Source: Natronorubrum aibiense (GTDB lineage Archaea; Halobacteriota; Halobacteria; Halobacteriales; Natrialbaceae). Taken from it: a stretch of DNA of 64,000 nucleotides. Shown here one piece after another: positions 10,728 to 19,974 of this stretch. The stretch is from assembly GCF_009392895.1 (NCBI RefSeq), contig NZ_CP045489.1, positions 124,001-188,000 of the forward strand. Reading direction: 5' to 3'. The notes under the pieces are model-generated. The model saw only the letters and a program-made list of their open reading frames with translations, searched no databases and was not told where the DNA came from. The first letter of the stretch is position 1, and each line of letters begins with the position of its first letter. The position numbers were made by a program, and so were the translations under genes.

Positions 10728-11780
10728 TCAGTACACGTAGTTCCAGAAGAGTGGGTAGCCCCTGGCGGCGATGGCTCGCAGAATCGCCGGCCACGTCCCG
10801 CAGTGGACGATCCCGTCCGCCGCGAACAGGGCGGTGGTCCGACCGAGGTAGACGATTCTCGGATGCCACCGCTCGTCGTACTCTTTCGGCGGCCGTTCCC
10901 GGAGGTCCCGCAGCACGTTCTTCGCGGCTCGTCTGGCTTCCAGCCCCGCCGAATAGCCGTCTGTGACCTTTCCGGGGTAGTCGACCACGTCTCCGACCGC
11001 GTAGGTGCCGTCGGCGTCCCGACAGCGGAGGTACTTGTCGACGAGCAGGCCGCACTCGTTCCGCGGGAGGTCGAAATTCTCGATCACCGGATTCGGCTCC
11101 ACTCCGCCCGCCCAGACCGTCAGATCGCTTCGCTCGACGCGTTCCCCGTCCAACACGACGCCGTCGTCCGTCGTTTCTGTCGCGCGTGTCCCTGTCCGGA
11201 CGTCGACGCCTCGTCGCCCTAATTCTCCTTCGGCGATGCGTCCCGCACGCTCCGGAAAATCGGCGAGCGGGTGCTCGCCTGACGTGATTAGCGAGACGTC
11301 GAGGTCGATCGTGAGCGACGCAAGCGTCGCCGCCGTCTCGACGCCGACCGGGCCACCACCGACGATGACGACATCGCGAACACTCCCGGAGTGTACTGCA
11401 TGCTGAATCTCCCTGGCGTCTGTCCGAACGTCCGACACGCGACTGCGGTCGACGGCGTCGAGTCTGGTCACACCGCCGAGCGCGATCAGGAGGGTGTCAT
11501 ACTCTATCGACCCGCTCCGCAGGTCAACCCGCTTCTCAGCTGCGTCCAGCCACCGGACGTGATCCCGGACGACAGTGACATCTCTGTCGGCGAACGCGTC
11601 CCGTAGGTCAAGCGTCGCCCCATCGAACGGCATCCCCTTGATCACCCGGTAGAGCTGGAACGAGAATACATGGCGCTCCCGCTCGGAAACGACGACTACG
11701 TTCGTCTCGCTCGCGCGCTCCAGGTACGCCGCAGCGATCAAGCCCGCCTCTCCGCCGCCGAGGACGACTGTCCGTTTCAT
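10728..11780 (-). CDS. NDH-2-like FAD-dependent oxidoreductase
   Basis: A 350-residue two-dinucleotide-binding flavoprotein. VVLGGGEAGLIAAAYLE (about residues 5-21) binds FAD and VVIVGGGPVGVETAATLA near residue 140 binds NAD(P)H. WAGGVEPNP and TYAVGDVVDYPG are the closing FAD motifs. The family covers type II NADH dehydrogenases and sulfide:quinone-oxidoreductase-like proteins. I do not see the redox cysteines expected of SQR, so the NDH-2 side is preferred. It lies 172 bp downstream of the ferredoxin gene on the same strand, which suggests a shared electron-transfer role. Confidence 0.8.
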   Translation of the reverse strand: MKRTVVLGGGEAGLIAAAYLERASETNVVVVSERERHVFSFQLYRVIKGMPFDGATLDLRDAFADRDVTVVRDHVRWLDAAEKRVDLRSGSIEYDTLLIALGGVTRLDAVDRSRVSDVRTDAREIQHAVHSGSVRDVVIVGGGPVGVETAATLASLTIDLDVSLITSGEHPLADFPERAGRIAEGELGRRGVDVRTGTRATETTDDGVVLDGERVERSDLTVWAGGVEPNPVIENFDLPRNECGLLVDKYLRCRDADGTYAVGDVVDYPGKVTDGYSAGLEARRAAKNVLRDLRERPPKEYDERWHPRIVYLGRTTALFAADGIVHCGTWPAILRAIAARGYPLFWNYVY

Positions 11781-11952
11781 ACGTGGTCGATTAGTCGCGC
11801 CGGAACGTTCGACGTCCGACGCATCGGTCTCTGAGTGTTAGATTGAGTATACTATGCCAGTTTTGTTCAAATCGATATCCGTGTTTCAGACAGGAGCGCG
11901 GCGAGGGAGGCAACGGTCGCCGCGTGGGCGAGTCGTCTCATTTCAGTTCAGT

Positions 11953-12267
11953 TCATTTCCACGGGTTTGGGACGAGGTCGGCCTGCACCTCGGCGCCGAC
12001 CTCGATTCGGCAGTCGGAGCGGGGTTCAGCTATGCAGAGGAGCACGTAGCCCGCCTGTCGGTGCCGGGGTTTCAGCCCATTCGCTCGCTCGACGTGGACG
12101 AGGTCGCCATCCAGGAGACGCCCGGTGCAGGTGGCGCAGGCGCCGTGCAGACAGCCGTAGGGGACGCCAAGGCCGTCGCGCTCGGTGGCGTCGATGACCG
12201 TCTCCCCCTCGGCCACCTCAACGGTCGCCTCCCGGCCGTCGCGCCACTCGAGAGTGACCCGATGCAT
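11953..12267 (-). CDS. [2Fe-2S] plant-type ferredoxin
   Basis: A 104-residue ferredoxin. The cluster-binding loop is YGCLHGACATCTG (Cys-x4-Cys-x2-Cys) with the fourth ligand in YVLLCIAEP. ETVIDATERDGLGVPYGC is typical of the fold. ATG immediately follows the TAG of the SBP56 gene (TAG-ATG), so the two are co-translated. The ferredoxin is the likely electron partner of the oxidase or of the flavoprotein downstream; that pairing is inferred from position. Confidence 0.9.
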   Translation of the reverse strand: MHRVTLEWRDGREATVEVAEGETVIDATERDGLGVPYGCLHGACATCTGRLLDGDLVHVERANGLKPRHRQAGYVLLCIAEPRSDCRIEVGAEVQADLVPNPWK

Positions 12268-13671
12268 CTACTGCCAGACGTCGCTGGTGCAGTCGCCGCC
12301 GGGCCAGCGAATCTCGTGGGCGCGGGCCGGGCCACCCGGGGCGTCGCCGAAGTCGACGAGGAAGTCCTCGTCAAGTTCCATCCGTCCCTCGTCGGGGTAG
12401 ACGTCCGCCTTCATCATTAGCGACCCCTTCTCGCCGATTTCGGGGTAGAACTGGTTGTCCCACGAGGAGAACAGAGACGTCGTCCAGTAGATGCGCTTGC
12501 CGTCGCGGGAGAGCTGGAGCATCTGAGGCGCGCCACGGATTTCAGTGCCCTGAATCTCCTGTCGGTCGGCGAAGTTACCACCGGTCCAGATCCGATCGAC
12601 CAGCCGAGGGTTGCCGAAGTCGCTCACGTCGTACATCCGCATGTCGCCGTGCAGCCAGTTCGAGAAGAACAGGTACTGGTCGTCCAGTGAGAGGACGATG
12701 TCCGTCACGAGACCGGGGACGGGCATGTCCCAGTCGGGATGCTCGCGGGACTCGACGTCGATGACCTTCTCCCACTCCCACACGCCGTCGCTCTCCTCCC
12801 AGAAGCGGAGGATGTTCGAGGAGAGCGCCGCACCGACGTAGCCCTGGGTCTCCTCGGGATCGTGCGGCATGCGAATCTCCAGCGGAATCTGCCCCTCCTC
12901 GCCGAAGTTCAGGGTCTGCTGGTGCTCCTTGTTCTCCCAGTCCCAGATGTGGATGCTGTCGCCGTACTTGCCCTCCTCGACGTCGTCGAGATCGAAGCCA
13001 GGGTAGTAGGTCTTCGGCGCAGCCCACTCCGTCGAGATCATCACGTTGTGACGGGGCTGGTACCAGTAGTCGTAGTTCATCTCCATGTCGCCGCGGTCGG
13101 CTTCCCAGTGGCCGTCGATGGAGAAGTCGCTCTGGTCCAACTGGAGGAAGCCACCGGGGAGTTCGCCGTTGGCGTCCCCGAGCATACTGATGACGACCTT
13201 CCCACCGGGGACACAGTGGACCGTGTGCGGCGCAGACAGATCGTATTCGAAGATCTCCTCGGGTTCGATGACCTTCTCGATCTCCATGTTACGCGGGTCC
13301 TCGGCGTCAAGGATGTGTATGCGGGAGGACCGCTGTCCGGGGACGATGAGGTGATCGCGCATCAGTCCCTCGGTGTGACACGATGACGAACAGGAGTTCC
13401 AGCCGAAGTGGTGGAGTTCGTCGCCCTTGTTCGGCATCTCGACGGTGTCGACCAGTTCGCTGTACGTGTCCGATTCGGGGTCGAGGTCGACGACGCCGAT
13501 GAAGTCGGAGCCGTCGACGTCCATCCCGACACGGAGCGCGATGACGAACGCCGTCTTCTCGCGCTCCGACTCGGTCCGCATCGCTGCGGGCGTCGGATAG
13601 CCCGGTCCCTCTACCTCGTGGTGTTCGTGTCCGTGCTTCTCGGCCGTGCTGCTGGGTTCGTCAGTGCTCAT
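12268..13671 (-). CDS. SBP56 family methanethiol oxidase / selenium-binding protein
   Basis: A 467-residue beta-propeller protein. The family signature is visible: ELHHFGWNSCSSSC near residue 90 (the conserved Cys region), LSAPHTVHCVPGG, HWEADRGDMEMNYDYWYQP and CTSDVWQ at the C terminus. Bacterial members oxidise methanethiol to formaldehyde, sulfide and peroxide and bind copper. An N-terminal His-rich stretch (EKHGHEHHEVEGPGYP) may bind metal. ATG at 13671 is preferred over an upstream GTG. It is first in an operon with ferredoxin and is divergent from an HTH_10 regulator across a palindrome. Confidence 0.9.
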   Translation of the reverse strand: MSTDEPSSTAEKHGHEHHEVEGPGYPTPAAMRTESEREKTAFVIALRVGMDVDGSDFIGVVDLDPESDTYSELVDTVEMPNKGDELHHFGWNSCSSSCHTEGLMRDHLIVPGQRSSRIHILDAEDPRNMEIEKVIEPEEIFEYDLSAPHTVHCVPGGKVVISMLGDANGELPGGFLQLDQSDFSIDGHWEADRGDMEMNYDYWYQPRHNVMISTEWAAPKTYYPGFDLDDVEEGKYGDSIHIWDWENKEHQQTLNFGEEGQIPLEIRMPHDPEETQGYVGAALSSNILRFWEESDGVWEWEKVIDVESREHPDWDMPVPGLVTDIVLSLDDQYLFFSNWLHGDMRMYDVSDFGNPRLVDRIWTGGNFADRQEIQGTEIRGAPQMLQLSRDGKRIYWTTSLFSSWDNQFYPEIGEKGSLMMKADVYPDEGRMELDEDFLVDFGDAPGGPARAHEIRWPGGDCTSDVWQ

Positions 13672-13712
13672 GCGAGGCAGTAACACTCACATGACGGCCA
13701 TAAATAATAATT

Positions 13713-13732
13713 GAGTTGTCGAGCGACAACTC
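13713..13732. promoter_or_regulatory. Perfect 20-bp palindromic operator candidate
   Basis: GAGTTGTCG and CGACAACTC (9-bp arms, 2-bp centre) lie between the divergent SBP56 and HTH_10 genes, next to an AT-rich TAAATAATAA stretch. A partial echo (GTCGGTTGCTCGAC) follows. This is a likely binding site for the adjacent regulator. Confidence 0.65.
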
Positions 13733-13827
13733 GTGTCGGTTGCTCGACCTTAGGGAAACCTTATGCGCTGGCCGACGTACTCCCGGAGTGTGTTCGTGGT
13801 GTCCCACGACGACCGGGAGGGTGCCTG

Positions 13828-14547
13828 ATGCGTGAGTTCACGTTCGATATCGTGTACGAGACGGGTTCCGATCCGGTGATGGACGTGTTCATCGAGCATC
13901 CGACACTCGTCGCCAAGGCGTTACACGGCTGTGTAACCAAGGACCGCTTCTGGCGCATCGAGCGCCTGATCGGTCCGACGGCGGCGCTCGACGCGGTCGA
14001 ACGACTCCGCCTCGACGAGACGGTACGGACGGCGTCAGTGACCGAGGCGGACTGTTCGGCCATGCGGTACCACGACGTGCTGGACCGCTCGGACGACGAG
14101 CGGGTGATCTACACCCACGTCGAGGACGTCGAGGACGGTGAATCCGTTCAGACACTCGCCGGTCGGTATCTCCCCCACGGATCGCTCTACTGCACCTCGC
14201 GTCGGGAGAACCGTCACAGCTGGCGTATCTTCATGAAGTCCGATGAGAATGTGGGCCTGTTGCACGACGCTCTCGACGCGAATCTGCGGGCGGGACTTGC
14301 CTTTCGTATGGGTCACCTCCGCAACGCCGAGGGGTGGGGACACAACTCCTTAGGATCGGTGGTGCTCCCCCCTGACCAGCGGACAGCGATGCGCGCAGCC
14401 CTCGATCACGGCTACTACCGGACGCCGCGAGAGGTCACGTTGGACGACCTGGCCGAGGAGCTCGACGTGCCACGGTCGACGCTCTCCTATCGGTTGCGTC
14501 GGGCGGAAGAACGGCTCGTGTCGGGGTACCTCGGCGAGACCGGCTAG
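13828..14547 (+). CDS. HTH_10 (Bat-type) transcriptional regulator
   Basis: A 239-residue protein. A sensor-like N-terminal domain starts MREFTFDIVYETGSDPVMDV. The C-terminal HTH_10 domain (TLDDLAEELDVPRSTLSYRLRRAEERLV) is the hallmark of halobacterial Bat/DmsR-type regulators. ATG at 13828 is chosen because upstream codons are not conserved-looking. It is divergent from the methanethiol-oxidase operon, which it probably controls in response to a sulfur compound or oxygen; the signal is inferred. Confidence 0.85.
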   Translation: MREFTFDIVYETGSDPVMDVFIEHPTLVAKALHGCVTKDRFWRIERLIGPTAALDAVERLRLDETVRTASVTEADCSAMRYHDVLDRSDDERVIYTHVEDVEDGESVQTLAGRYLPHGSLYCTSRRENRHSWRIFMKSDENVGLLHDALDANLRAGLAFRMGHLRNAEGWGHNSLGSVVLPPDQRTAMRAALDHGYYRTPREVTLDDLAEELDVPRSTLSYRLRRAEERLVSGYLGETG

Positions 14548-14882
14548 CTACTCGTTTAGCCAGGTCTCGATGATCCAATCGTAATCCTGGAGTTCGTCCT
14601 CGGAAAAAAGAGGTCGATCTCCCGTTCGTTTGCGCCCTCGCTCTCGTGGCCGGAGCCGTGGATGACGTTCCAACCGAGGTCGAGACCGAAGTCGCCGCGG
14701 ATGGTGCCGGGGTCGGACTCGGCGGGGTCCGTCTCGTCCATCATCGCCTGGACCTGCCGGGTGGCGTCCTGGCCCTCCCAGACCATCGCCATGACCGGAC
14801 CGGAGGTGATGAACTCGACGAGATCGTCGCTCGGGACGGTGCCGAAGCACCAACGTCTCTCGGTCGCTGTCGTAGTCCTTCA
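14548..14882 (-). pseudogene. ndk: Nucleoside diphosphate kinase fragment, frameshifted
   Basis: The C-terminal part of NDK is clear: [19 protein letters not shown], then [20 protein letters not shown] and [12 protein letters not shown]. The protein then leaves frame at six As (14604-14609 on the plus strand). One extra base would restore [10 protein letters not shown] to the end. A second shift near 14850 precedes VEFITSGP. The N-terminal half, including the fold start, is missing and the fragment ends exactly where repeat copy 2 begins (14883). Non-functional. Confidence 0.85.
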
Positions 14883-15531
14883 GCTCGAGCGGTTTACCAT
14901 TGCTCCGGTGGCATGGAGGTGGTGATCTCCGCTGGACCGAACAGGCGAAAATACCGATTGACACTATCTTCTGAATAAGTAATTCTATTTTGCGTTAATC
15001 ACAGGTTTCCTATAATGATAGACTTCTTCATGAAAACTGTTCATAACCGGTTGTCTGACGCACGTCATTAGAAGAACATCTGGTTTTATATGTTGGTTCA
15101 TGGCAACGGTGATTGTGCAGACTACTCAATCACTCAGTCTGAAGATTGTAGAGAAAATCGCCAAACGTGAAGGAGTTCAACCGGAAGAACTCAAACCACC
15201 AATTCACTCTGCAATTGATACGGACGCACTTGATTCGCTCTATCAATCGAGTGACTCTGACAGGGGTCCGTCCAAAGTTGAATTCCGATACAAAGGCTAT
15301 ACAGTGATAGTCGATAGGGCAGGTGATGTGGATGTCGAGAAACACGTAGCGGCCTTGGAACCTGATAAAACCGTAGCGTGATTCTCTCTGCGTCTTAGGA
15401 CTGAATTTTGATATATTACTAGTCCGTATCAACGACTACCTCAGTGGCAACCTCGAAAGTCATTGCTCGCGTCGATAGCGTCTCGGCAATCCCCGACGCT
15501 GCTCGAGCGTTGAAGTCGTCGCGCTCGAGAA
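14883..15531 (+). repeat. Direct repeat copy 2 (~650 bp, HalOD1 block)
   Basis: Matches 251-900 closely and carries the intact HalOD1 gene. Its left end cuts the ndk fragment, so this copy is probably the inserted one here, or the junction of a rearrangement. No inverted ends or target duplication are obvious. Confidence 0.85.
15100..15381 (+). CDS. HalOD1-domain protein, copy 2 (intact start)
   Basis: A 93-residue paralogue of the protein at 477-749, starting with ATG (MATVIVQTTQSLSLK). It has the same HalOD1 features: IVEKIAKREGVQPEELKPP, AIDTDALDSLY and VEFRYKGYTVIVD. An AT-rich upstream region with TTTTATATG supports a leaderless promoter. Probably the functional copy. HalOD1 proteins are thought to be regulatory, but the partner is unknown. 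Confidence 0.85.
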   Translation: MATVIVQTTQSLSLKIVEKIAKREGVQPEELKPPIHSAIDTDALDSLYQSSDSDRGPSKVEFRYKGYTVIVDRAGDVDVEKHVAALEPDKTVA

Positions 15532-16373: not shown

Positions 16374-17735
16374 ATGACTGTCCAAACCAGTTATTCCTCT
16401 GCCGGGGATCAGTTCAACTCTATCGCCGAGGTCCTCGCGAAAGCCAACGAACCGAAGACAGGCGATGAACTGGCGGAGATCGCGGCCGAATCGGATGCCG
16501 AGCGTGTTGCGGCCAAACGCGCCCTCGCTGGTATGCACCTCGAAACGCTGCGGGAGAATCCGGTTGTTCCGTATGACGAGGATGAGGTAACGCGCGTTAT
16601 CCAGAACGCTGTCCGAGAACCGATCTATGATCGGATAAAAGACTGGACAGTTGCTGACCTCCGCGAGTTTCTCGTCGATAGTGCAACAGGCGAGAACGAG
16701 ATCGCGGCGATTCGGCCTGGTCTGACGAGCGAGATGATTGCCGCAGTGACGAAGCTCATGTCAAATATGGATCTCGTGCTCGTCACCTCAAAGATGGAGG
16801 TCACGGCCCGCTGCAATACGACTGTCGGTGAGTCGGGTACACTCTCGTTTCGACTGCAACCGAATGATCCCACAGACGATGTCGACAATATTGTTGACGC
16901 GACCCGAGAAGGGCTGGCCTACGGCGTCGGCGATGCGGTGATCGGCGTCAACCCGGTCACCGATACCGTAGAGACGACAACGCGAATCCTCGAGGCGACC
17001 CACGACTTCATCAAGGAATGGGGTATTCCGACGCAAAACTGCTGTCTTTCTCACATTACCACACAGATGGACGCTATCCGCGAGGGTGCGCCCGCTGACT
17101 TGGTGTTCCAGAGCTTGGCTGGCACCGAAGTTGGCAATGACGAGTTCGGAATTGACGTCGCTCTGCTCGACGAGGCTCACGACCTCGCGCAGCGTCGCTG
17201 TCGATCGTCGGGACCGAACGTGATGTACTTCGAGACGGGCCAGGGCGCAGAACTCTCTAGTGACGCCCACCAAGGAATTGACCAGCTTACACTTGAGGCG
17301 CGCTGTTACGGCCTCGCGAAGCGGTACGACCCGTTCCTTGTCAACACCGTCGTCGGCTTCATCGGTCCGGAGTACCTCTACGACGGCCAGCAGGTCATCC
17401 GTGCGGGCCTAGAGGACGTGTTCATGGGTCAACTCCACGGCATCTCGATGGGAATTGACGCTTGCTACACCAATCACATCCAGGCGGATCAGAACGACAT
17501 CGAGAATCTCTCGGTCCTGCTTGCTGCCGCGGGGACGAACTACTTCATTACGGTGCCGATGGGAGACGACGTGATGTTGAACTACCAGTCGAACAGCTAC
17601 CACGACGCCGCCACGCTATGGGAGATCTTCGGCCTCGAGCCGACGCCCGCGTTCCGGGAGTGGCTTGAGGAGATGTCGCTCTGGGAGAACGGCCAGTTGA
17701 CCGACCGAGCGGGTGACTCGACCATCTTCACGTGA
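16374..17735 (+). CDS. eutB: Ethanolamine ammonia-lyase large subunit
   Basis: 453 residues, the same length as the enterobacterial enzyme. Family blocks are clear: SKMEVTARCNTTVG, VGDAVIGVNPVTD, YFETGQGAELSSDAHQG and GFIGPEYLYDGQQVIRAGLE. IGDACYTNH-like (GIDACYTNHIQADQNDIENL) and MGDDVMLNYQSNSYHDAATL follow. With EutC it cleaves ethanolamine to acetaldehyde and ammonia using adenosylcobalamin. First gene of eutBCA. The next gene starts 2 bp after its stop. Confidence 0.95.
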   Translation: MTVQTSYSSAGDQFNSIAEVLAKANEPKTGDELAEIAAESDAERVAAKRALAGMHLETLRENPVVPYDEDEVTRVIQNAVREPIYDRIKDWTVADLREFLVDSATGENEIAAIRPGLTSEMIAAVTKLMSNMDLVLVTSKMEVTARCNTTVGESGTLSFRLQPNDPTDDVDNIVDATREGLAYGVGDAVIGVNPVTDTVETTTRILEATHDFIKEWGIPTQNCCLSHITTQMDAIREGAPADLVFQSLAGTEVGNDEFGIDVALLDEAHDLAQRRCRSSGPNVMYFETGQGAELSSDAHQGIDQLTLEARCYGLAKRYDPFLVNTVVGFIGPEYLYDGQQVIRAGLEDVFMGQLHGISMGIDACYTNHIQADQNDIENLSVLLAAAGTNYFITVPMGDDVMLNYQSNSYHDAATLWEIFGLEPTPAFREWLEEMSLWENGQLTDRAGDSTIFT

Positions 17736-17737
17736 TC

Positions 17738-18514
17738 ATGTCATTCAAAAACAATTCTCCCCGCGAGACCGACCTGATCGAGGACTGCACCGACGAAGAG
17801 ATCCTCCGCCACATTGTCGATCGAACCCCCACGCGGGTGGGGGTCGGCCGCGCTGGCCCGCGCCCGCGAACCGACTCCCTGCTTGAGTTCAGGGCGGATC
17901 ACGGCGTTGCGCGCGACGCCGTCCTCTCGCACGTCGACAGCGATGTGATCCAAGAACTTGACCTAGTACATCTGGAGACGCGAGTCGTAGACAAAGACCA
18001 GTACCTAGCCCGCCCCGACCTCGGCCGAGAACTCGCCGCCAACAGTATCGATATCTTACATGATCAGTGCGAACACGAACCTGAGGTCCAAGTCGTCGTT
18101 GCCGACGGGCTCTCCTCGACGGCCGTCGAGATGAACGCCCCGGAGCTGTTGCCGGTTCTGCGCGACGGCCTTTCCGATCGCGACATCGAGGTGGGAACCC
18201 CAGTGTTCGTCGAATATGGCCGCGTCAACGTGATGGACGCGATCAGCGAGGAACTCGATGCCGACTGCTGTATCATTCTTATTGGAGAGCGCCCCGGACT
18301 CAAGAGCGCCGAGAGCCTGAGCGCGTACCTCGCCTACGGGTCGGAACGCGGCATGCCGACTGCGAAAAAGTCCGTCATCTCGAACATTCACGACGGTGGC
18401 CTGCCGCCGATTGAGGCCGGCGCCGAACTCGTTGACCTGATCGCTGAGATGCTCGAAAAGGAAGCCAGTGGGATCGACCTCCGCGAGGACGATCGTGAAT
18501 TCAAACCGGACTAG
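17738..18514 (+). CDS. eutC: Ethanolamine ammonia-lyase small subunit
   Basis: 258 residues. VGVGRAGPRPRTDSLLEFRADH (short of the N-terminal extension of bacterial forms), VVVADGLSSTAVE, CCIILIGERPGLKSAESLSAYL and SVISNIHDGGLPPIEAGAEL are EutC signatures that contribute to cobalamin binding. ATG at 17738 lies just after the eutB stop, so the subunits are co-translated. Somewhat shorter than Escherichia coli EutC. Confidence 0.95.
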   Translation: MSFKNNSPRETDLIEDCTDEEILRHIVDRTPTRVGVGRAGPRPRTDSLLEFRADHGVARDAVLSHVDSDVIQELDLVHLETRVVDKDQYLARPDLGRELAANSIDILHDQCEHEPEVQVVVADGLSSTAVEMNAPELLPVLRDGLSDRDIEVGTPVFVEYGRVNVMDAISEELDADCCIILIGERPGLKSAESLSAYLAYGSERGMPTAKKSVISNIHDGGLPPIEAGAELVDLIAEMLEKEASGIDLREDDREFKPD

Positions 18515-18525
18515 GTGCACAATCC

Positions 18526-19974
18526 GTGAGTAACCATTCGAAGACACTGACGAGCATCGGTGTGGACGTTGGGACGACCACGACCCATGCGGTCGTTAGC
18601 CACCTACGCGTCGAGACGCTGCCGGGCAGTGGTACTTCGCCGACCATTACCGACCGCGAGATCGTCCACCGGGGAACGGTCCGCGAGACGCCGCTAGTCG
18701 ATCCTGAGACGATCGACGTCGATCGGGTGGCTGCGATCATAGACAGCGAACTTGCAGCAGGGGGTGTCACGCCGGCAGAGATCGACACGGGGGCAGTGAT
18801 CGTCACTGGCGAGACCGCCCGCCGTGAGAACGCCGAACCGCTGGTCCACCGACTTGCTGACAATACCGGCCAGTTCGTCGCGGCGACAGCTGGCGCATCG
18901 CTCGAAGCTGTCCTCGCCGGTCGGGGCTCGGGTGCAGAGGCTCGGGCCGCTGAACTCGGTGGATGCGTCGCCAATGTGGATATTGGGGGTGGGACGACGA
19001 ACGTGGCTATTTTCGACGCTGCGGAATCAAACGACAACAATGTCACTGTTAGAGAGACCCGCTGTCTGGACATCGGCGGTCGTCTCGTCACGTTCGATGA
19101 CGCAGACCGGGTTACTTCGATTTCTCCGCCCGCGCGGACAATTGTAGAAGCAGTCAACCTACCAATCACCGTTGGCAGTTCACCGGATAAGGCTGCTCTT
19201 AAGACGCTCGCAGTTACGATGGCCGATTTGATCGTTGACCTGTGTACGGGCCCGCCATTCGACGCTCTTACGCGTGTGCTCGCAATCGGTACCCTTCCTG
19301 ACGAACCTCTCGATCTGAACAGCGTTGTTTTCAGCGGCGGCGTCGGTCGTCTTATCGCATCGCCACCGGCAGATCCGTTCGCGTACAACGACCTTGGTGG
19401 GATGCTCGCAGCCGCGATTGCAACTCACGACCGCGTCCGATCGTGGTCAGTCTTCGATCCCACGGAGGACATTCGCGCGACCGTTGCTGGCGCAGGGACA
19501 GAGACGATAAAGCTCAGCGGCCGCACCGTTTCGCTTGATCTGTCGCTGTTGCCTTTACGAAATGCACCCGTCGTTGCTGTTTCTGACCTTGTGGATTGTT
19601 CAGACGATCAACTTGAGCGCCGGTTTGAGGTCGCCCTCGAAACACTCACCGACCTCCATGACCCCGATGCGATCGACGGCATCGCGCTCTCGATTGACGA
19701 AGTCGGACCCCTGATGTATGAACGCCTCAAAATCGTTGTTGGAGCGCTCGCGGCCGCACTTCACTCGATCCCCTCGTCACTTCCTGTGGTTGTCGTCACA
19801 CGCCAGAACTGTGCGAAGGCCCTCGGACAAATGCTTCGCCGAGAAATTGACCAGCCCCTGATTGTTATTGACGAGATCCCCTCGACAAACGGCGACTATT
19901 TAGACATAGGTAAACCGGTGGCCGATAATGGAAGTGTCCCGGTAGTAGTAAAAACTCTGGTATTTGGCCAGTGA
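18526..19974 (+). CDS. eutA: Ethanolamine ammonia-lyase reactivating factor
   Basis: 482 residues with a GTG start at 18526, 11 bp after eutC. An ASKHA-type fold is indicated by GVDVGTTTTHAVV at the N terminus, VTGETARRENAE, and NVDIGGGTTNVAIF around residue 150. EutA is an ATP-dependent chaperone that removes damaged cobalamin from EutBC. Its presence shows the module is equipped for sustained catalysis. No shell-protein, EutD/E or cobalamin-adenosylation genes are in the window. Confidence 0.95.
   Translation: MSNHSKTLTSIGVDVGTTTTHAVVSHLRVETLPGSGTSPTITDREIVHRGTVRETPLVDPETIDVDRVAAIIDSELAAGGVTPAEIDTGAVIVTGETARRENAEPLVHRLADNTGQFVAATAGASLEAVLAGRGSGAEARAAELGGCVANVDIGGGTTNVAIFDAAESNDNNVTVRETRCLDIGGRLVTFDDADRVTSISPPARTIVEAVNLPITVGSSPDKAALKTLAVTMADLIVDLCTGPPFDALTRVLAIGTLPDEPLDLNSVVFSGGVGRLIASPPADPFAYNDLGGMLAAAIATHDRVRSWSVFDPTEDIRATVAGAGTETIKLSGRTVSLDLSLLPLRNAPVVAVSDLVDCSDDQLERRFEVALETLTDLHDPDAIDGIALSIDEVGPLMYERLKIVVGALAAALHSIPSSLPVVVVTRQNCAKALGQMLRREIDQPLIVIDEIPSTNGDYLDIGKPVADNGSVPVVVKTLVFGQ

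What the first reader, a model, noticed from the sequence alone, without database searches (positions are those of the whole stretch)
10728..14547. Methanethiol oxidase co-translated with a [2Fe-2S] ferredoxin and linked to an NDH-2-like flavoprotein
Seen: TAG-ATG fusion of SBP56 and ferredoxin genes, a flavoprotein 172 bp downstream, and a divergent HTH_10 regulator across a perfect 20-bp palindrome. Known: bacterial methanethiol oxidase uses O2 directly. Inference: in haloarchaea the electrons may instead pass to ferredoxin and on to quinone, a different route for volatile sulfur oxidation.
Basis: partly seen in the sequence, partly recalled or inferred. Interest (0 to 1): 0.5.

Follow-up and report, generated by a model that had tools for sequence, protein, structure and literature searches.

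The report
Methanethiol oxidase with its own ferredoxin
A copper enzyme family that breaks down the smelly gas methanethiol is encoded together with its own small electron-carrying protein in salt-loving archaea and in several groups of bacteria, which suggests an electron partner for this enzyme that does not seem to have been described.

Summary
SBP56 (12268-13671, -) ends TAG and the next bases are the ATG of a plant-type [2Fe-2S] ferredoxin (11953-12267, -). An HTH_10 regulator is divergent; a flavoprotein follows after 172 bp.

The pair is widespread. Of 151 haloarchaeal SBP56 loci examined, 139 carry the ferredoxin directly downstream; the 11 without it and one broken copy form a single clade. 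It recurs in 29 of 80 bacterial loci and in a Phaeobacter plasmid cluster with rhodanese, dioxygenase-like and DMSP-demethylase-like genes. The six residues needed for human methanethiol-oxidase activity are conserved.

The flavoprotein has a close homologue in 1 of 145 genomes, this one. Passing electrons from methanethiol to a low-potential ferredoxin looks uphill by 0.2-0.4 V (estimate from recalled constants), so I favour electrons flowing from ferredoxin to the copper enzyme. The palindrome is 9+2+9, not perfect, but tracks the regulator. An unannotated membrane protein is a frequent third partner, absent from this window. Function is inferred; nothing was assayed.

The parts
12268..13671 (-). 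SBP56 / SELENBP1-type copper thiol (methanethiol) oxidase candidate, 467 aa from ATG 13671 (mechanical ORF from GTG 13686); H92, H93, H154, H157, D206, E270 in the 472-aa numbering correspond to the six residues needed in human SELENBP1
   Evidence: PF05694 642 bits; 2ECE E 2e-111; six residues in 129 of 129 aligned rows, residues named in PMC10362175
11953..12267 (-). plant-type [2Fe-2S] ferredoxin, 104 aa, CX4CX2C...C, abuts the SBP56 stop codon (TAG|ATG)
   Evidence: PF00111 61.7 bits; best solved relatives are entries named Ferredoxin-1, E about 1e-20; directly downstream of SBP56 in 139 of 151 haloarchaeal loci
13713..13732 (.). operator candidate GAGTTGTCG-NN-CGACAACTC (9+2+9 inverted repeat) next to the TATA-like TTATTATTTAT of the SBP56 promoter
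   Evidence: 0-3 mismatches of 18 in 10 of 11 loci with an intact regulator (the eleventh, L045, has 5), 6-9 in 34 of 34 without; 1 match in window, 0.04 expected
13828..14547 (+). divergent regulator, HVO_2928_N + HTH_10
   Evidence: PF24281 202.8 bits, PF04967 58.9 bits
10728..11780 (-). FAD/NAD(P)-binding flavoprotein, NDH-2-like at superfamily level; a local neighbour, judged not part of the conserved module
   Evidence: PF07992 130.9 bits; best solved relatives labelled FAD-dependent pyridine nucleotide-disulfide oxidoreductase, 5kmq and 4nwz, E about 2e-18; 1 of 145 genomes at E up to 1e-40

Best explanation
The module is a copper-dependent SBP56/SELENBP1-type thiol oxidase, most likely acting on methanethiol or a close thiol, encoded with its own plant-type [2Fe-2S] ferredoxin so that the two are probably co-translated, and switched by a divergent HTH_10 regulator at a 9+2+9 operator. 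Shown: gene pair, conservation, conserved copper-site residues, operator tracking the regulator. Inferred: the ferredoxin, reduced by the cell's general systems (2-oxoacid oxidoreductases in haloarchaea, photosystem I or ferredoxin reductase in bacteria; recalled), delivers electrons TO the copper centre of SBP56, either to keep it in the reduced, O2-reactive state or to supply the two electrons of a monooxygenase-like cleavage (CH3SH + O2 + 2e- + 2H+ -> HCHO + H2S + H2O) that avoids free H2O2.
For: Pair kept in 139 of 151 haloarchaeal loci, 49 of 49 in the window's own clade and 61 of 61 in the next; the exceptions form one clade (support 99). Pair in 29 of 80 bacterial loci: Pseudomonadota 20, Cyanobacteriota 6, Actinomycetota MAGs 2, a Bacteroidota MAG 1, plus Paracoccus and Phaeobacter plasmids. 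In 14 cyanobacterial genomes searched whole (of 18 cyanobacterial loci; 4 with an adjacent pair, 10 without), the linked ferredoxin type (134-226 bits) was found 6 times, each within 4 kb downstream of SBP56; the other 8 genomes had nothing above 83 bits. Joints change form (38 of 139 four-base overlaps, 18 abutting, 64 within 30 bp; starts called mechanically) while adjacency stays. C-terminal NP tail in 28 of 29 bacterial and 74 of 96 mainly haloarchaeal linked rows against 1 of 45 unlinked (the 96 include two bacterial rows, the 45 one duplicate). Methanethiol context: Phaeobacter cluster with CoA-binding, rhodanese, Blh-like dioxygenase (367 bits, cut-off 625) and DMSP-demethylase-like GcvT (377 bits, cut-off 410); Paracoccus with a PpoB2 copper chaperone and S-(hydroxymethyl)glutathione dehydrogenase nearby. 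Six catalytic residues 129 of 129. Electron direction: thermodynamic estimate from recalled formation energies only.
Against: I know of no assay of a ferredoxin-linked SBP56. Purified human, Hyphomicrobium and Rhodobacterales enzymes turn over methanethiol with O2 alone. 51 of 80 bacterial loci show no ferredoxin within 700 bp (three of them, L205, L192, L169, have 67-536 bp of sequence left), including every Planctomycetota, Rubrobacter and Chloroflexota row; the haloarchaeal side clade does without it, and eight cyanobacterial genomes hold SBP56 without this ferredoxin type at all. So ferredoxin is not obligatory for the family. Natronorubrum bangense has lost the ferredoxin beside a 98.5% identical SBP56. 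The midpoint potential of this ferredoxin is unknown. NCBI's methanethiol-oxidase model scores 121 bits against a cut-off of 650, so the substrate is inferred.
Confidence: 0.45

Rival explanations
1. One reading: SBP56 works as a dehydrogenase and hands the electrons of methanethiol to ferredoxin, then to a quinone-linked flavoprotein.
For: Conserved, closely coupled pair. Would allow oxidation at low O2. An earlier suggestion tied methanethiol oxidase activity of Aminobacter lissarensis to a PaaE-like ferredoxin/flavin protein (PMC3621897, passages).
Against: Close homologue of the flavoprotein in 1 of 145 genomes. Uphill by about 0.2-0.4 V for a normal plant-type ferredoxin (recalled constants). 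Known relatives use O2 directly.
Confidence: 0.15
2. Ferredoxin is a maturation or repair partner: it reduces the copper site or helps build a protein-derived cofactor once per enzyme, taking the place of SCO1/MauG in the periplasmic MtoX operons and of copper chaperones elsewhere.
For: MtoX operons carry SCO1/SenC and MauG (PMC5739008, passages). The Paracoccus pair is followed by a PpoB2 'copper chaperone' gene. The 12 haloarchaeal SBP56 loci without an intact ferredoxin are all followed by the unannotated membrane protein with metal-transporter-like HRxxEG/HxxxE motifs.
Against: Tight gene coupling suggests use in matching amounts. The membrane protein also stands behind the ferredoxin in 25 loci, so it does not simply replace it.
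Confidence: 0.25
3. Ferredoxin serves the sulfur product: it supplies electrons to reduce persulfide or sulfane sulfur made by SBP56 to sulfide, or takes part in persulfide handling.
For: Rhodobacterales cluster-1 oxidases make sulfane sulfur, not H2O2 (PMC10936201, sections 9 and 10); the window enzyme carries nearly the same three cysteine motifs (GWNSCS, HTVHC, GGDCT). The Phaeobacter cluster adds rhodanese and a dioxygenase-like protein.
Against: I did not search the haloarchaeal loci for rhodanese or dioxygenase genes specifically; the rough neighbour clusters show no such gene as a frequent partner. The extra ferredoxin cysteine I suspected is not specific to linked copies.
Confidence: 0.1
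4. Neighbourhood only: the genes stay together by chance or shared inheritance, and the ferredoxin serves other reactions.
For: Some lineages lost one partner. Many of the 151 loci are close relatives.
Against: Pair kept while other flanking genes turn over (no other neighbour cluster in more than 23 of 101 loci in the rough clustering; 37 of 151 for the membrane protein with a profile); occurrence in Halobacteria, Cyanobacteriota and Pseudomonadota; linked ferredoxin type not found away from SBP56 in 14 cyanobacterial genomes.
Confidence: 0.05

Closest known systems
Bacterial methanethiol oxidase MtoX (Hyphomicrobium sp. VS, Ruegeria pomeroyi)
   Same: SBP56 superfamily; the paper reports strict conservation of its copper/cofactor residues across the three domains of life (passage)
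   Different: MtoX has a signal peptide and is predicted periplasmic, with SCO1/SenC and MauG neighbours; the window protein shows no hydrophobic N-terminal signal by eye, has a ferredoxin neighbour, and scores 121 of the 650 bits needed for the MtoX model
SELENBP1 (human methanethiol oxidase)
   Same: Six activity-critical residues conserved
   Different: CSSSC instead of CSSC in the haloarchaeal rows (already noted in PMC10277263, passage); the main text of the human-enzyme paper does not contain the word ferredoxin
Rhodobacterales cluster-1 MTOs (RdMTO, RlMTO)
   Same: Three conserved cysteine motifs GWNACS, HTV(I)HC, GGDCS(T), nearly as in the window (GWNSCS, HTVHC, GGDCT)
   Different: Whether the RdMTO and RlMTO genes carry a ferredoxin neighbour was not tested; the main text does not contain the word ferredoxin
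Plant/cyanobacterial-type ferredoxin (PetF) and haloarchaeal Fer
   Same: CX4CX2C...C Fer2 protein, E about 1e-20 to solved Ferredoxin-1 entries (that these are cyanobacterial is recalled)
   Different: C-terminal NP tail in most linked copies; 41 of 150 bits on the haloarchaeal Fer model and 70 of 81 on the plant-type model

Membership tests
SBP56 superfamily (PF05694) | Pfam gathering score 34 bits | tested here: met
   642.2 bits over residues 26-471
Copper-dependent methanethiol oxidase, SELENBP1 type | Six residues needed for activity (His73, His74, His137, His140, Asp189, Glu252 in human) | tested here: met
   Residues from PMC10362175 (passages) placed by motif (HH, HxxH, YD-W, PLE) in the window; conserved in 129 of 129 rows. 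The human sequence itself was not aligned.
Copper-dependent methanethiol oxidase, SELENBP1 type | Methanethiol turnover and copper content | not testable with these tools
   needs protein
MtoX equivalog (NF052453) | Score of 650 bits | tested here: not met
   121 bits; the ferredoxin-linked Phaeobacter and Paracoccus proteins also fail, 151 and 159 bits
MtoX-type operon | SCO1/SenC and MauG genes beside the oxidase | tested here: not met
   Of 14 window ORFs scanned with Pfam around the pair none matched SCO1 or MauG; not every ORF of the window was scanned
Plant-type [2Fe-2S] ferredoxin | CX4CX2C...C and Fer2 score | tested here: met
   61.7 bits, cut-off 21; motif in 137 of 139 linked haloarchaeal copies. 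The narrower NCBIfam plant-type model gives 70.4 bits, cut-off 81.
Type II NADH dehydrogenase (NDH-2) | NDH-2-specific model, membrane anchor, quinone site | tested here: inconclusive
   Passes general dinucleotide-binding Pfam models such as Pyr_redox_2; the NCBIfam hits shown are below cut-off; best solved relatives 5kmq/4nwz, E about 2e-18 (that these are an NDH-2 is recalled)
HTH_10 regulator | PF04967 above 23.1 bits | tested here: met
   58.9 bits, with PF24281 N-terminal domain

The most novel reading that the evidence does not exclude
A branch of the SBP56 family with members in Halobacteria, Cyanobacteriota and Pseudomonadota is a ferredoxin-dependent copper thiol monooxygenase: reduced [2Fe-2S] ferredoxin feeds electrons to the copper site so that methanethiol is cleaved without releasing H2O2, a biochemistry different from that of the human and MtoX oxidases.
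Probability: 0.22. Interest if true: 0.8.

Novelty: new variant of a known kind. Interest (0 to 1): 0.52.

Why it matters
Methanethiol oxidation is a sink of a widespread volatile sulfur compound, and the products of SBP56 enzymes (H2S plus H2O2, or sulfane sulfur plus water) are disputed in print (PMC5739008, PMC10936201; passages and sections). A dedicated electron carrier kept beside the enzyme in two domains of life could help explain why assays on isolated enzyme disagree, and offers a direct test: add the ferredoxin. The searches made here (open-access library only) showed no report of the pair.

Tried and rejected
Stop-codon readthrough giving a fused protein: rejected; joint in frame in 42 of 139, uninterrupted fusion in 0 of 139.

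Extra conserved cysteine as a mark of linked ferredoxins: rejected; 22 of 45 unlinked rows have it too.

Flavoprotein as part of the module: rejected. The plasmid search with it also reported no match, but for so general a fold that is unexpected and I give it little weight.

One common origin of the archaeal and bacterial linked ferredoxins: not decided. The tree (123 rows, 106 columns) puts them on two sides of a 100/98 split with unlinked copies near both, so separate pairing is possible. For it I used every second row of the 96 mainly haloarchaeal linked ones (plus the window and the plasmid rows) and dropped L163 (its frame breaks).

Membrane protein identity: no Pfam match at E up to 5 (3 sequences), no solved relative at E up to 10, one NCBIfam match at E 0.94 in 1 of 6 members; 'metal-transporter-like' is my reading of two motifs.

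Second exact copy of the operator core in this genome (C1:1507596): looked at; it falls among transporter-like and HisA-like ORFs (named by eye); no link to thiols seen.

Rows and counts: the 151 haloarchaeal loci are the window, 149 places taken from the (cut-off) list, and one (L341, with only part of SBP56) taken because of its ferredoxin hit; without it 138 of 150. 'Linked' means a profile match over 60 bits between 60 bp before and 400 bp after the SBP56 stop. Seven SBP56 rows show a stop inside the aligned stretch; the list flags five such matches; I kept them. That the strongest hits are copies beside SBP56, down to the first exception G216:C3 at 99.3 bits, was read by eye.
Full report
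What is there. On the minus strand of the window lie an SBP56 gene (12268-13671 from the likely ATG; mechanical ORF from GTG 13686), a 104-aa [2Fe-2S] ferredoxin (11953-12267) and, 172 bp further, a 350-aa flavoprotein (10728-11780); an HTH_10 regulator (13828-14547) is divergent. The SBP56 stop TAG abuts the ferredoxin ATG. The family assignments are strong for SBP56 (642 bits), Fer2 (61.7), HVO_2928_N (202.8) and HTH_10 (58.9); the flavoprotein passes only general dinucleotide-binding oxidoreductase models, with E about 2e-18 to 5kmq/4nwz among solved structures.

Conservation in Halobacteria. SBP56 is found in 136 of 391 genomes of the class. I fetched 150 further loci (149 from the cut-off list and one, L341, picked by its ferredoxin hit). 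With the window, 139 of 151 have the ferredoxin directly downstream on the same strand, 1 has a broken copy (L114) and 11 have none; without L341 it is 138 of 150. By identity to the window protein the counts are 49 of 49 (77% or more), 61 of 61 (65.5-77%) and 29 of 41 (below). In a FastTree tree of the 151 SBP56 proteins with 5 bacterial rows, the 12 loci without an intact ferredoxin form one clade (support 99), so a single loss suffices; a smaller IQ-TREE tree (129 rows, 42 of the 151 loci) agrees. In 27 of the 139 a second ferredoxin-like match lies upstream as well. The joints differ: 18 abutting, 38 four-base overlaps, 2 one-base and 8 other overlaps, 64 within 30 bp, 9 farther; starts were called mechanically. 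In a rough neighbour clustering of 101 loci no gene other than SBP56 and ferredoxin reached more than 23 loci.

Bacteria. A profile scan of genome contigs returned 80 bacterial loci, the cap of the tool, ranked against a Rubrobacter protein. A ferredoxin of the same type lies within 700 bp downstream in 29 of 80 (one, L163, with a broken frame): 20 Pseudomonadota, 6 Cyanobacteriota, 2 Actinomycetota MAGs and 1 Bacteroidota MAG (titles; MAG contigs may be misbinned). Two more Nostoc loci have it 1.9 and 3.9 kb downstream. None of the Planctomycetota, Rubrobacter or Chloroflexota loci shows it; L205 has too little sequence to judge. On the SBP56 tree the link changes state nine times, at least seven forced by starred branches (L114 counted as linked, L205 left out). 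In cyanobacteria I searched 14 whole genomes of the 18 cyanobacterial loci: six have the linked ferredoxin type and all six copies lie within 4 kb downstream of SBP56 (positions compared); the other eight have nothing above 83 bits. Among the alphaproteobacterial genomes, those of L197 and L199 gave the linked copy as their only match. In the Arenicellales genome of L193 a copy of 102 bits exists but was not seen beside SBP56.

Methanethiol context. On the Phaeobacter inhibens plasmid pP30_b the pair is followed by a CoA-binding protein, rhodanese, an MBL-fold protein matching the sulfur transferase/dioxygenase model Blh at 367 bits (cut-off 625), enoyl-CoA hydratase, acyl-CoA synthetase and a GcvT-like protein matching DMSP demethylase at 377 bits (cut-off 410). 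Both matches are below the curated cut-offs, so these are 'like', not members. In Paracoccus seriniphilus the pair is followed by a PpoB2 copper-chaperone-family gene, with S-(hydroxymethyl)glutathione dehydrogenase close by. A protein with one shared N-terminus, which I take by eye for the CoA-binding type of Phaeobacter, follows or precedes the ferredoxin in several alpha- and gammaproteobacterial loci; it was not scanned there.

Catalytic residues. The six residues whose mutation strongly suppresses human SELENBP1 activity (PMC10362175, passages) correspond to H92, H93, H154, H157, D206 and E270 here and are present in 129 of 129 aligned rows. The mapping is by motif; I did not align the human protein. 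Haloarchaeal rows carry CSSSC where most others carry CSSC, already noted in PMC10277263 (passage). The window protein fails NCBI's MtoX model (121 of 650 bits), as do the ferredoxin-linked bacterial proteins tested (151 and 159): they are a different branch from MtoX, whose operon carries SCO1/SenC and MauG (PMC5739008, passages).

Ferredoxins. Linked copies often share a C-terminal NP tail: 28 of 29 bacterial and 74 of 96 in the mainly haloarchaeal set (which includes Phaeobacter and Paracoccus), against 1 of 45 unlinked rows (one duplicate among them; same count when 40 instead of 15 residues beyond the match are read). An extra cysteine that I first took for a mark is in 22 of 45 unlinked rows and is not one. 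In the ferredoxin tree all 48 haloarchaeal linked rows used fall in one group together with 8 unlinked rows (87/86), and the 30 bacterial linked rows in another (63/74, weak), with a 100/98 branch between; with 106 columns it cannot settle one or two origins.

Regulation. The 9+2+9 inverted repeat lies next to a TATA-like element. Among 47 loci of the window's clade, the 11 with an intact regulator have 0, 0, 0, 0, 1, 1, 1, 1, 2, 3 and 5 mismatches of 18; the two with a broken regulator have 2 and 5; the 34 without have 6-9, as in shuffled sequence (mean about 8, lowest 4). L045 with 5 is borderline. This supports direct control of the operon by the regulator. The eleven are relatives, so they are not independent.

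The flavoprotein. At E up to 1e-40 it was found in 1 of 145 genomes (this one; weaker homologues were not listed) and, at 35 bits or more, beside 0 of 100 SBP56 loci, among them L033, whose SBP56 is 99% identical. It is a local neighbour with a 172-bp gap.

A third partner. In 37 of 151 loci an unannotated protein of about 240 residues with 6-7 hydrophobic segments (six sequences looked at) follows on the same strand: in 25 with ferredoxin and in the 12 without an intact one. HRxxEG and HxxxE motifs are invariant in the six sequences and recall ZIP metal transporters (recalled), but there is no Pfam or PDB match and no NCBIfam match of weight. It was not found in the window locus or in the 80 bacterial loci.

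Mechanism. Using recalled formation energies (CH3SH aq about -8, HCHO aq about -130, H2S aq about -28, H2O -237 kJ/mol), the couple HCHO + H2S / CH3SH has E0' near +0.03 V, and about -0.15 V at micromolar levels; with sulfane sulfur as product about -0.1 V. Plant-type ferredoxins lie near -0.35 to -0.42 V (recalled). Electron flow from methanethiol to such a ferredoxin is therefore uphill; flow from reduced ferredoxin to a copper centre and O2 is downhill. This rests on an assumed potential and was worked out by hand, not in a call. Purified relatives act on O2 without ferredoxin, so an absolute need is unlikely for the family as a whole.

Novelty. Literature searches and term searches inside the main texts of PMC10936201, PMC5739008, PMC10277263 and PMC10362175 (no occurrence of ferredoxin) showed no description of an SBP56-ferredoxin pair. 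Most listed papers were seen only as listings. The nearest is a remark that a PaaE-like ferredoxin/flavin protein might explain methanethiol oxidase activity in Aminobacter lissarensis (PMC3621897, passages). One table lists a ferredoxin (2517702559) and a selenium-binding protein (2517702560) of a marine Rhodobacteraceae with consecutive gene numbers, without comment on a pair in the passages seen (PMC10203303). The library is open-access only, so absence is not proof.

Noticed in passing
L035:6674-7447, L131:6541-7299 and similar (coordinates after turning SBP56 to the + strand): Unannotated ~240-aa multi-pass membrane protein with HRxxEG and HxxxE motifs right after SBP56-ferredoxin or, in the 12 loci without intact ferredoxin, right after SBP56; no Pfam or PDB match and no NCBIfam match of weight.
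   Followed up: partly
window 16374-19974: EutB, EutC and EutA genes: an ethanolamine ammonia-lyase operon in a haloarchaeon.
   Followed up: no
window about 14548-14964, minus strand: Looks by eye like a frameshifted remnant of nucleoside diphosphate kinase downstream of the regulator; no Pfam match of the open frame. An ndk-like gene is a neighbour cluster in 17 of 101 loci (named by eye).
   Followed up: no
L133:5000-7660 (Natronorubrum bangense plasmid): Same locus decaying: regulator annotated only as a fragment (frame broken by eye) and ferredoxin lost a few codons after its start, beside an intact 98.5% identical SBP56.
   Followed up: partly
27 haloarchaeal loci, e.g. L094, L103: A second ferredoxin-like match upstream of SBP56 on the same strand, giving ferredoxin-SBP56-ferredoxin.
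   Followed up: partly
L136:5974-13170 (Phaeobacter inhibens pP30_b): Possible DMSP-to-sulfur-oxidation cluster on a plasmid typed as conjugative: demethylase-like GcvT, acyl-CoA synthetase, enoyl-CoA hydratase, SBP56-ferredoxin, rhodanese, dioxygenase-like protein.
   Followed up: partly
own genome C1:2165454-2166851 (L123): A second SBP56 copy, 61-63% identical to the first, with its own ferredoxin downstream.
   Followed up: yes
PMC10203303, table in section 12: A marine Rhodobacteraceae expression table lists a ferredoxin and a selenium-binding protein with consecutive gene numbers and similar expression ratios (0.34 and 0.47): perhaps the same pair, expressed together.
   Followed up: no
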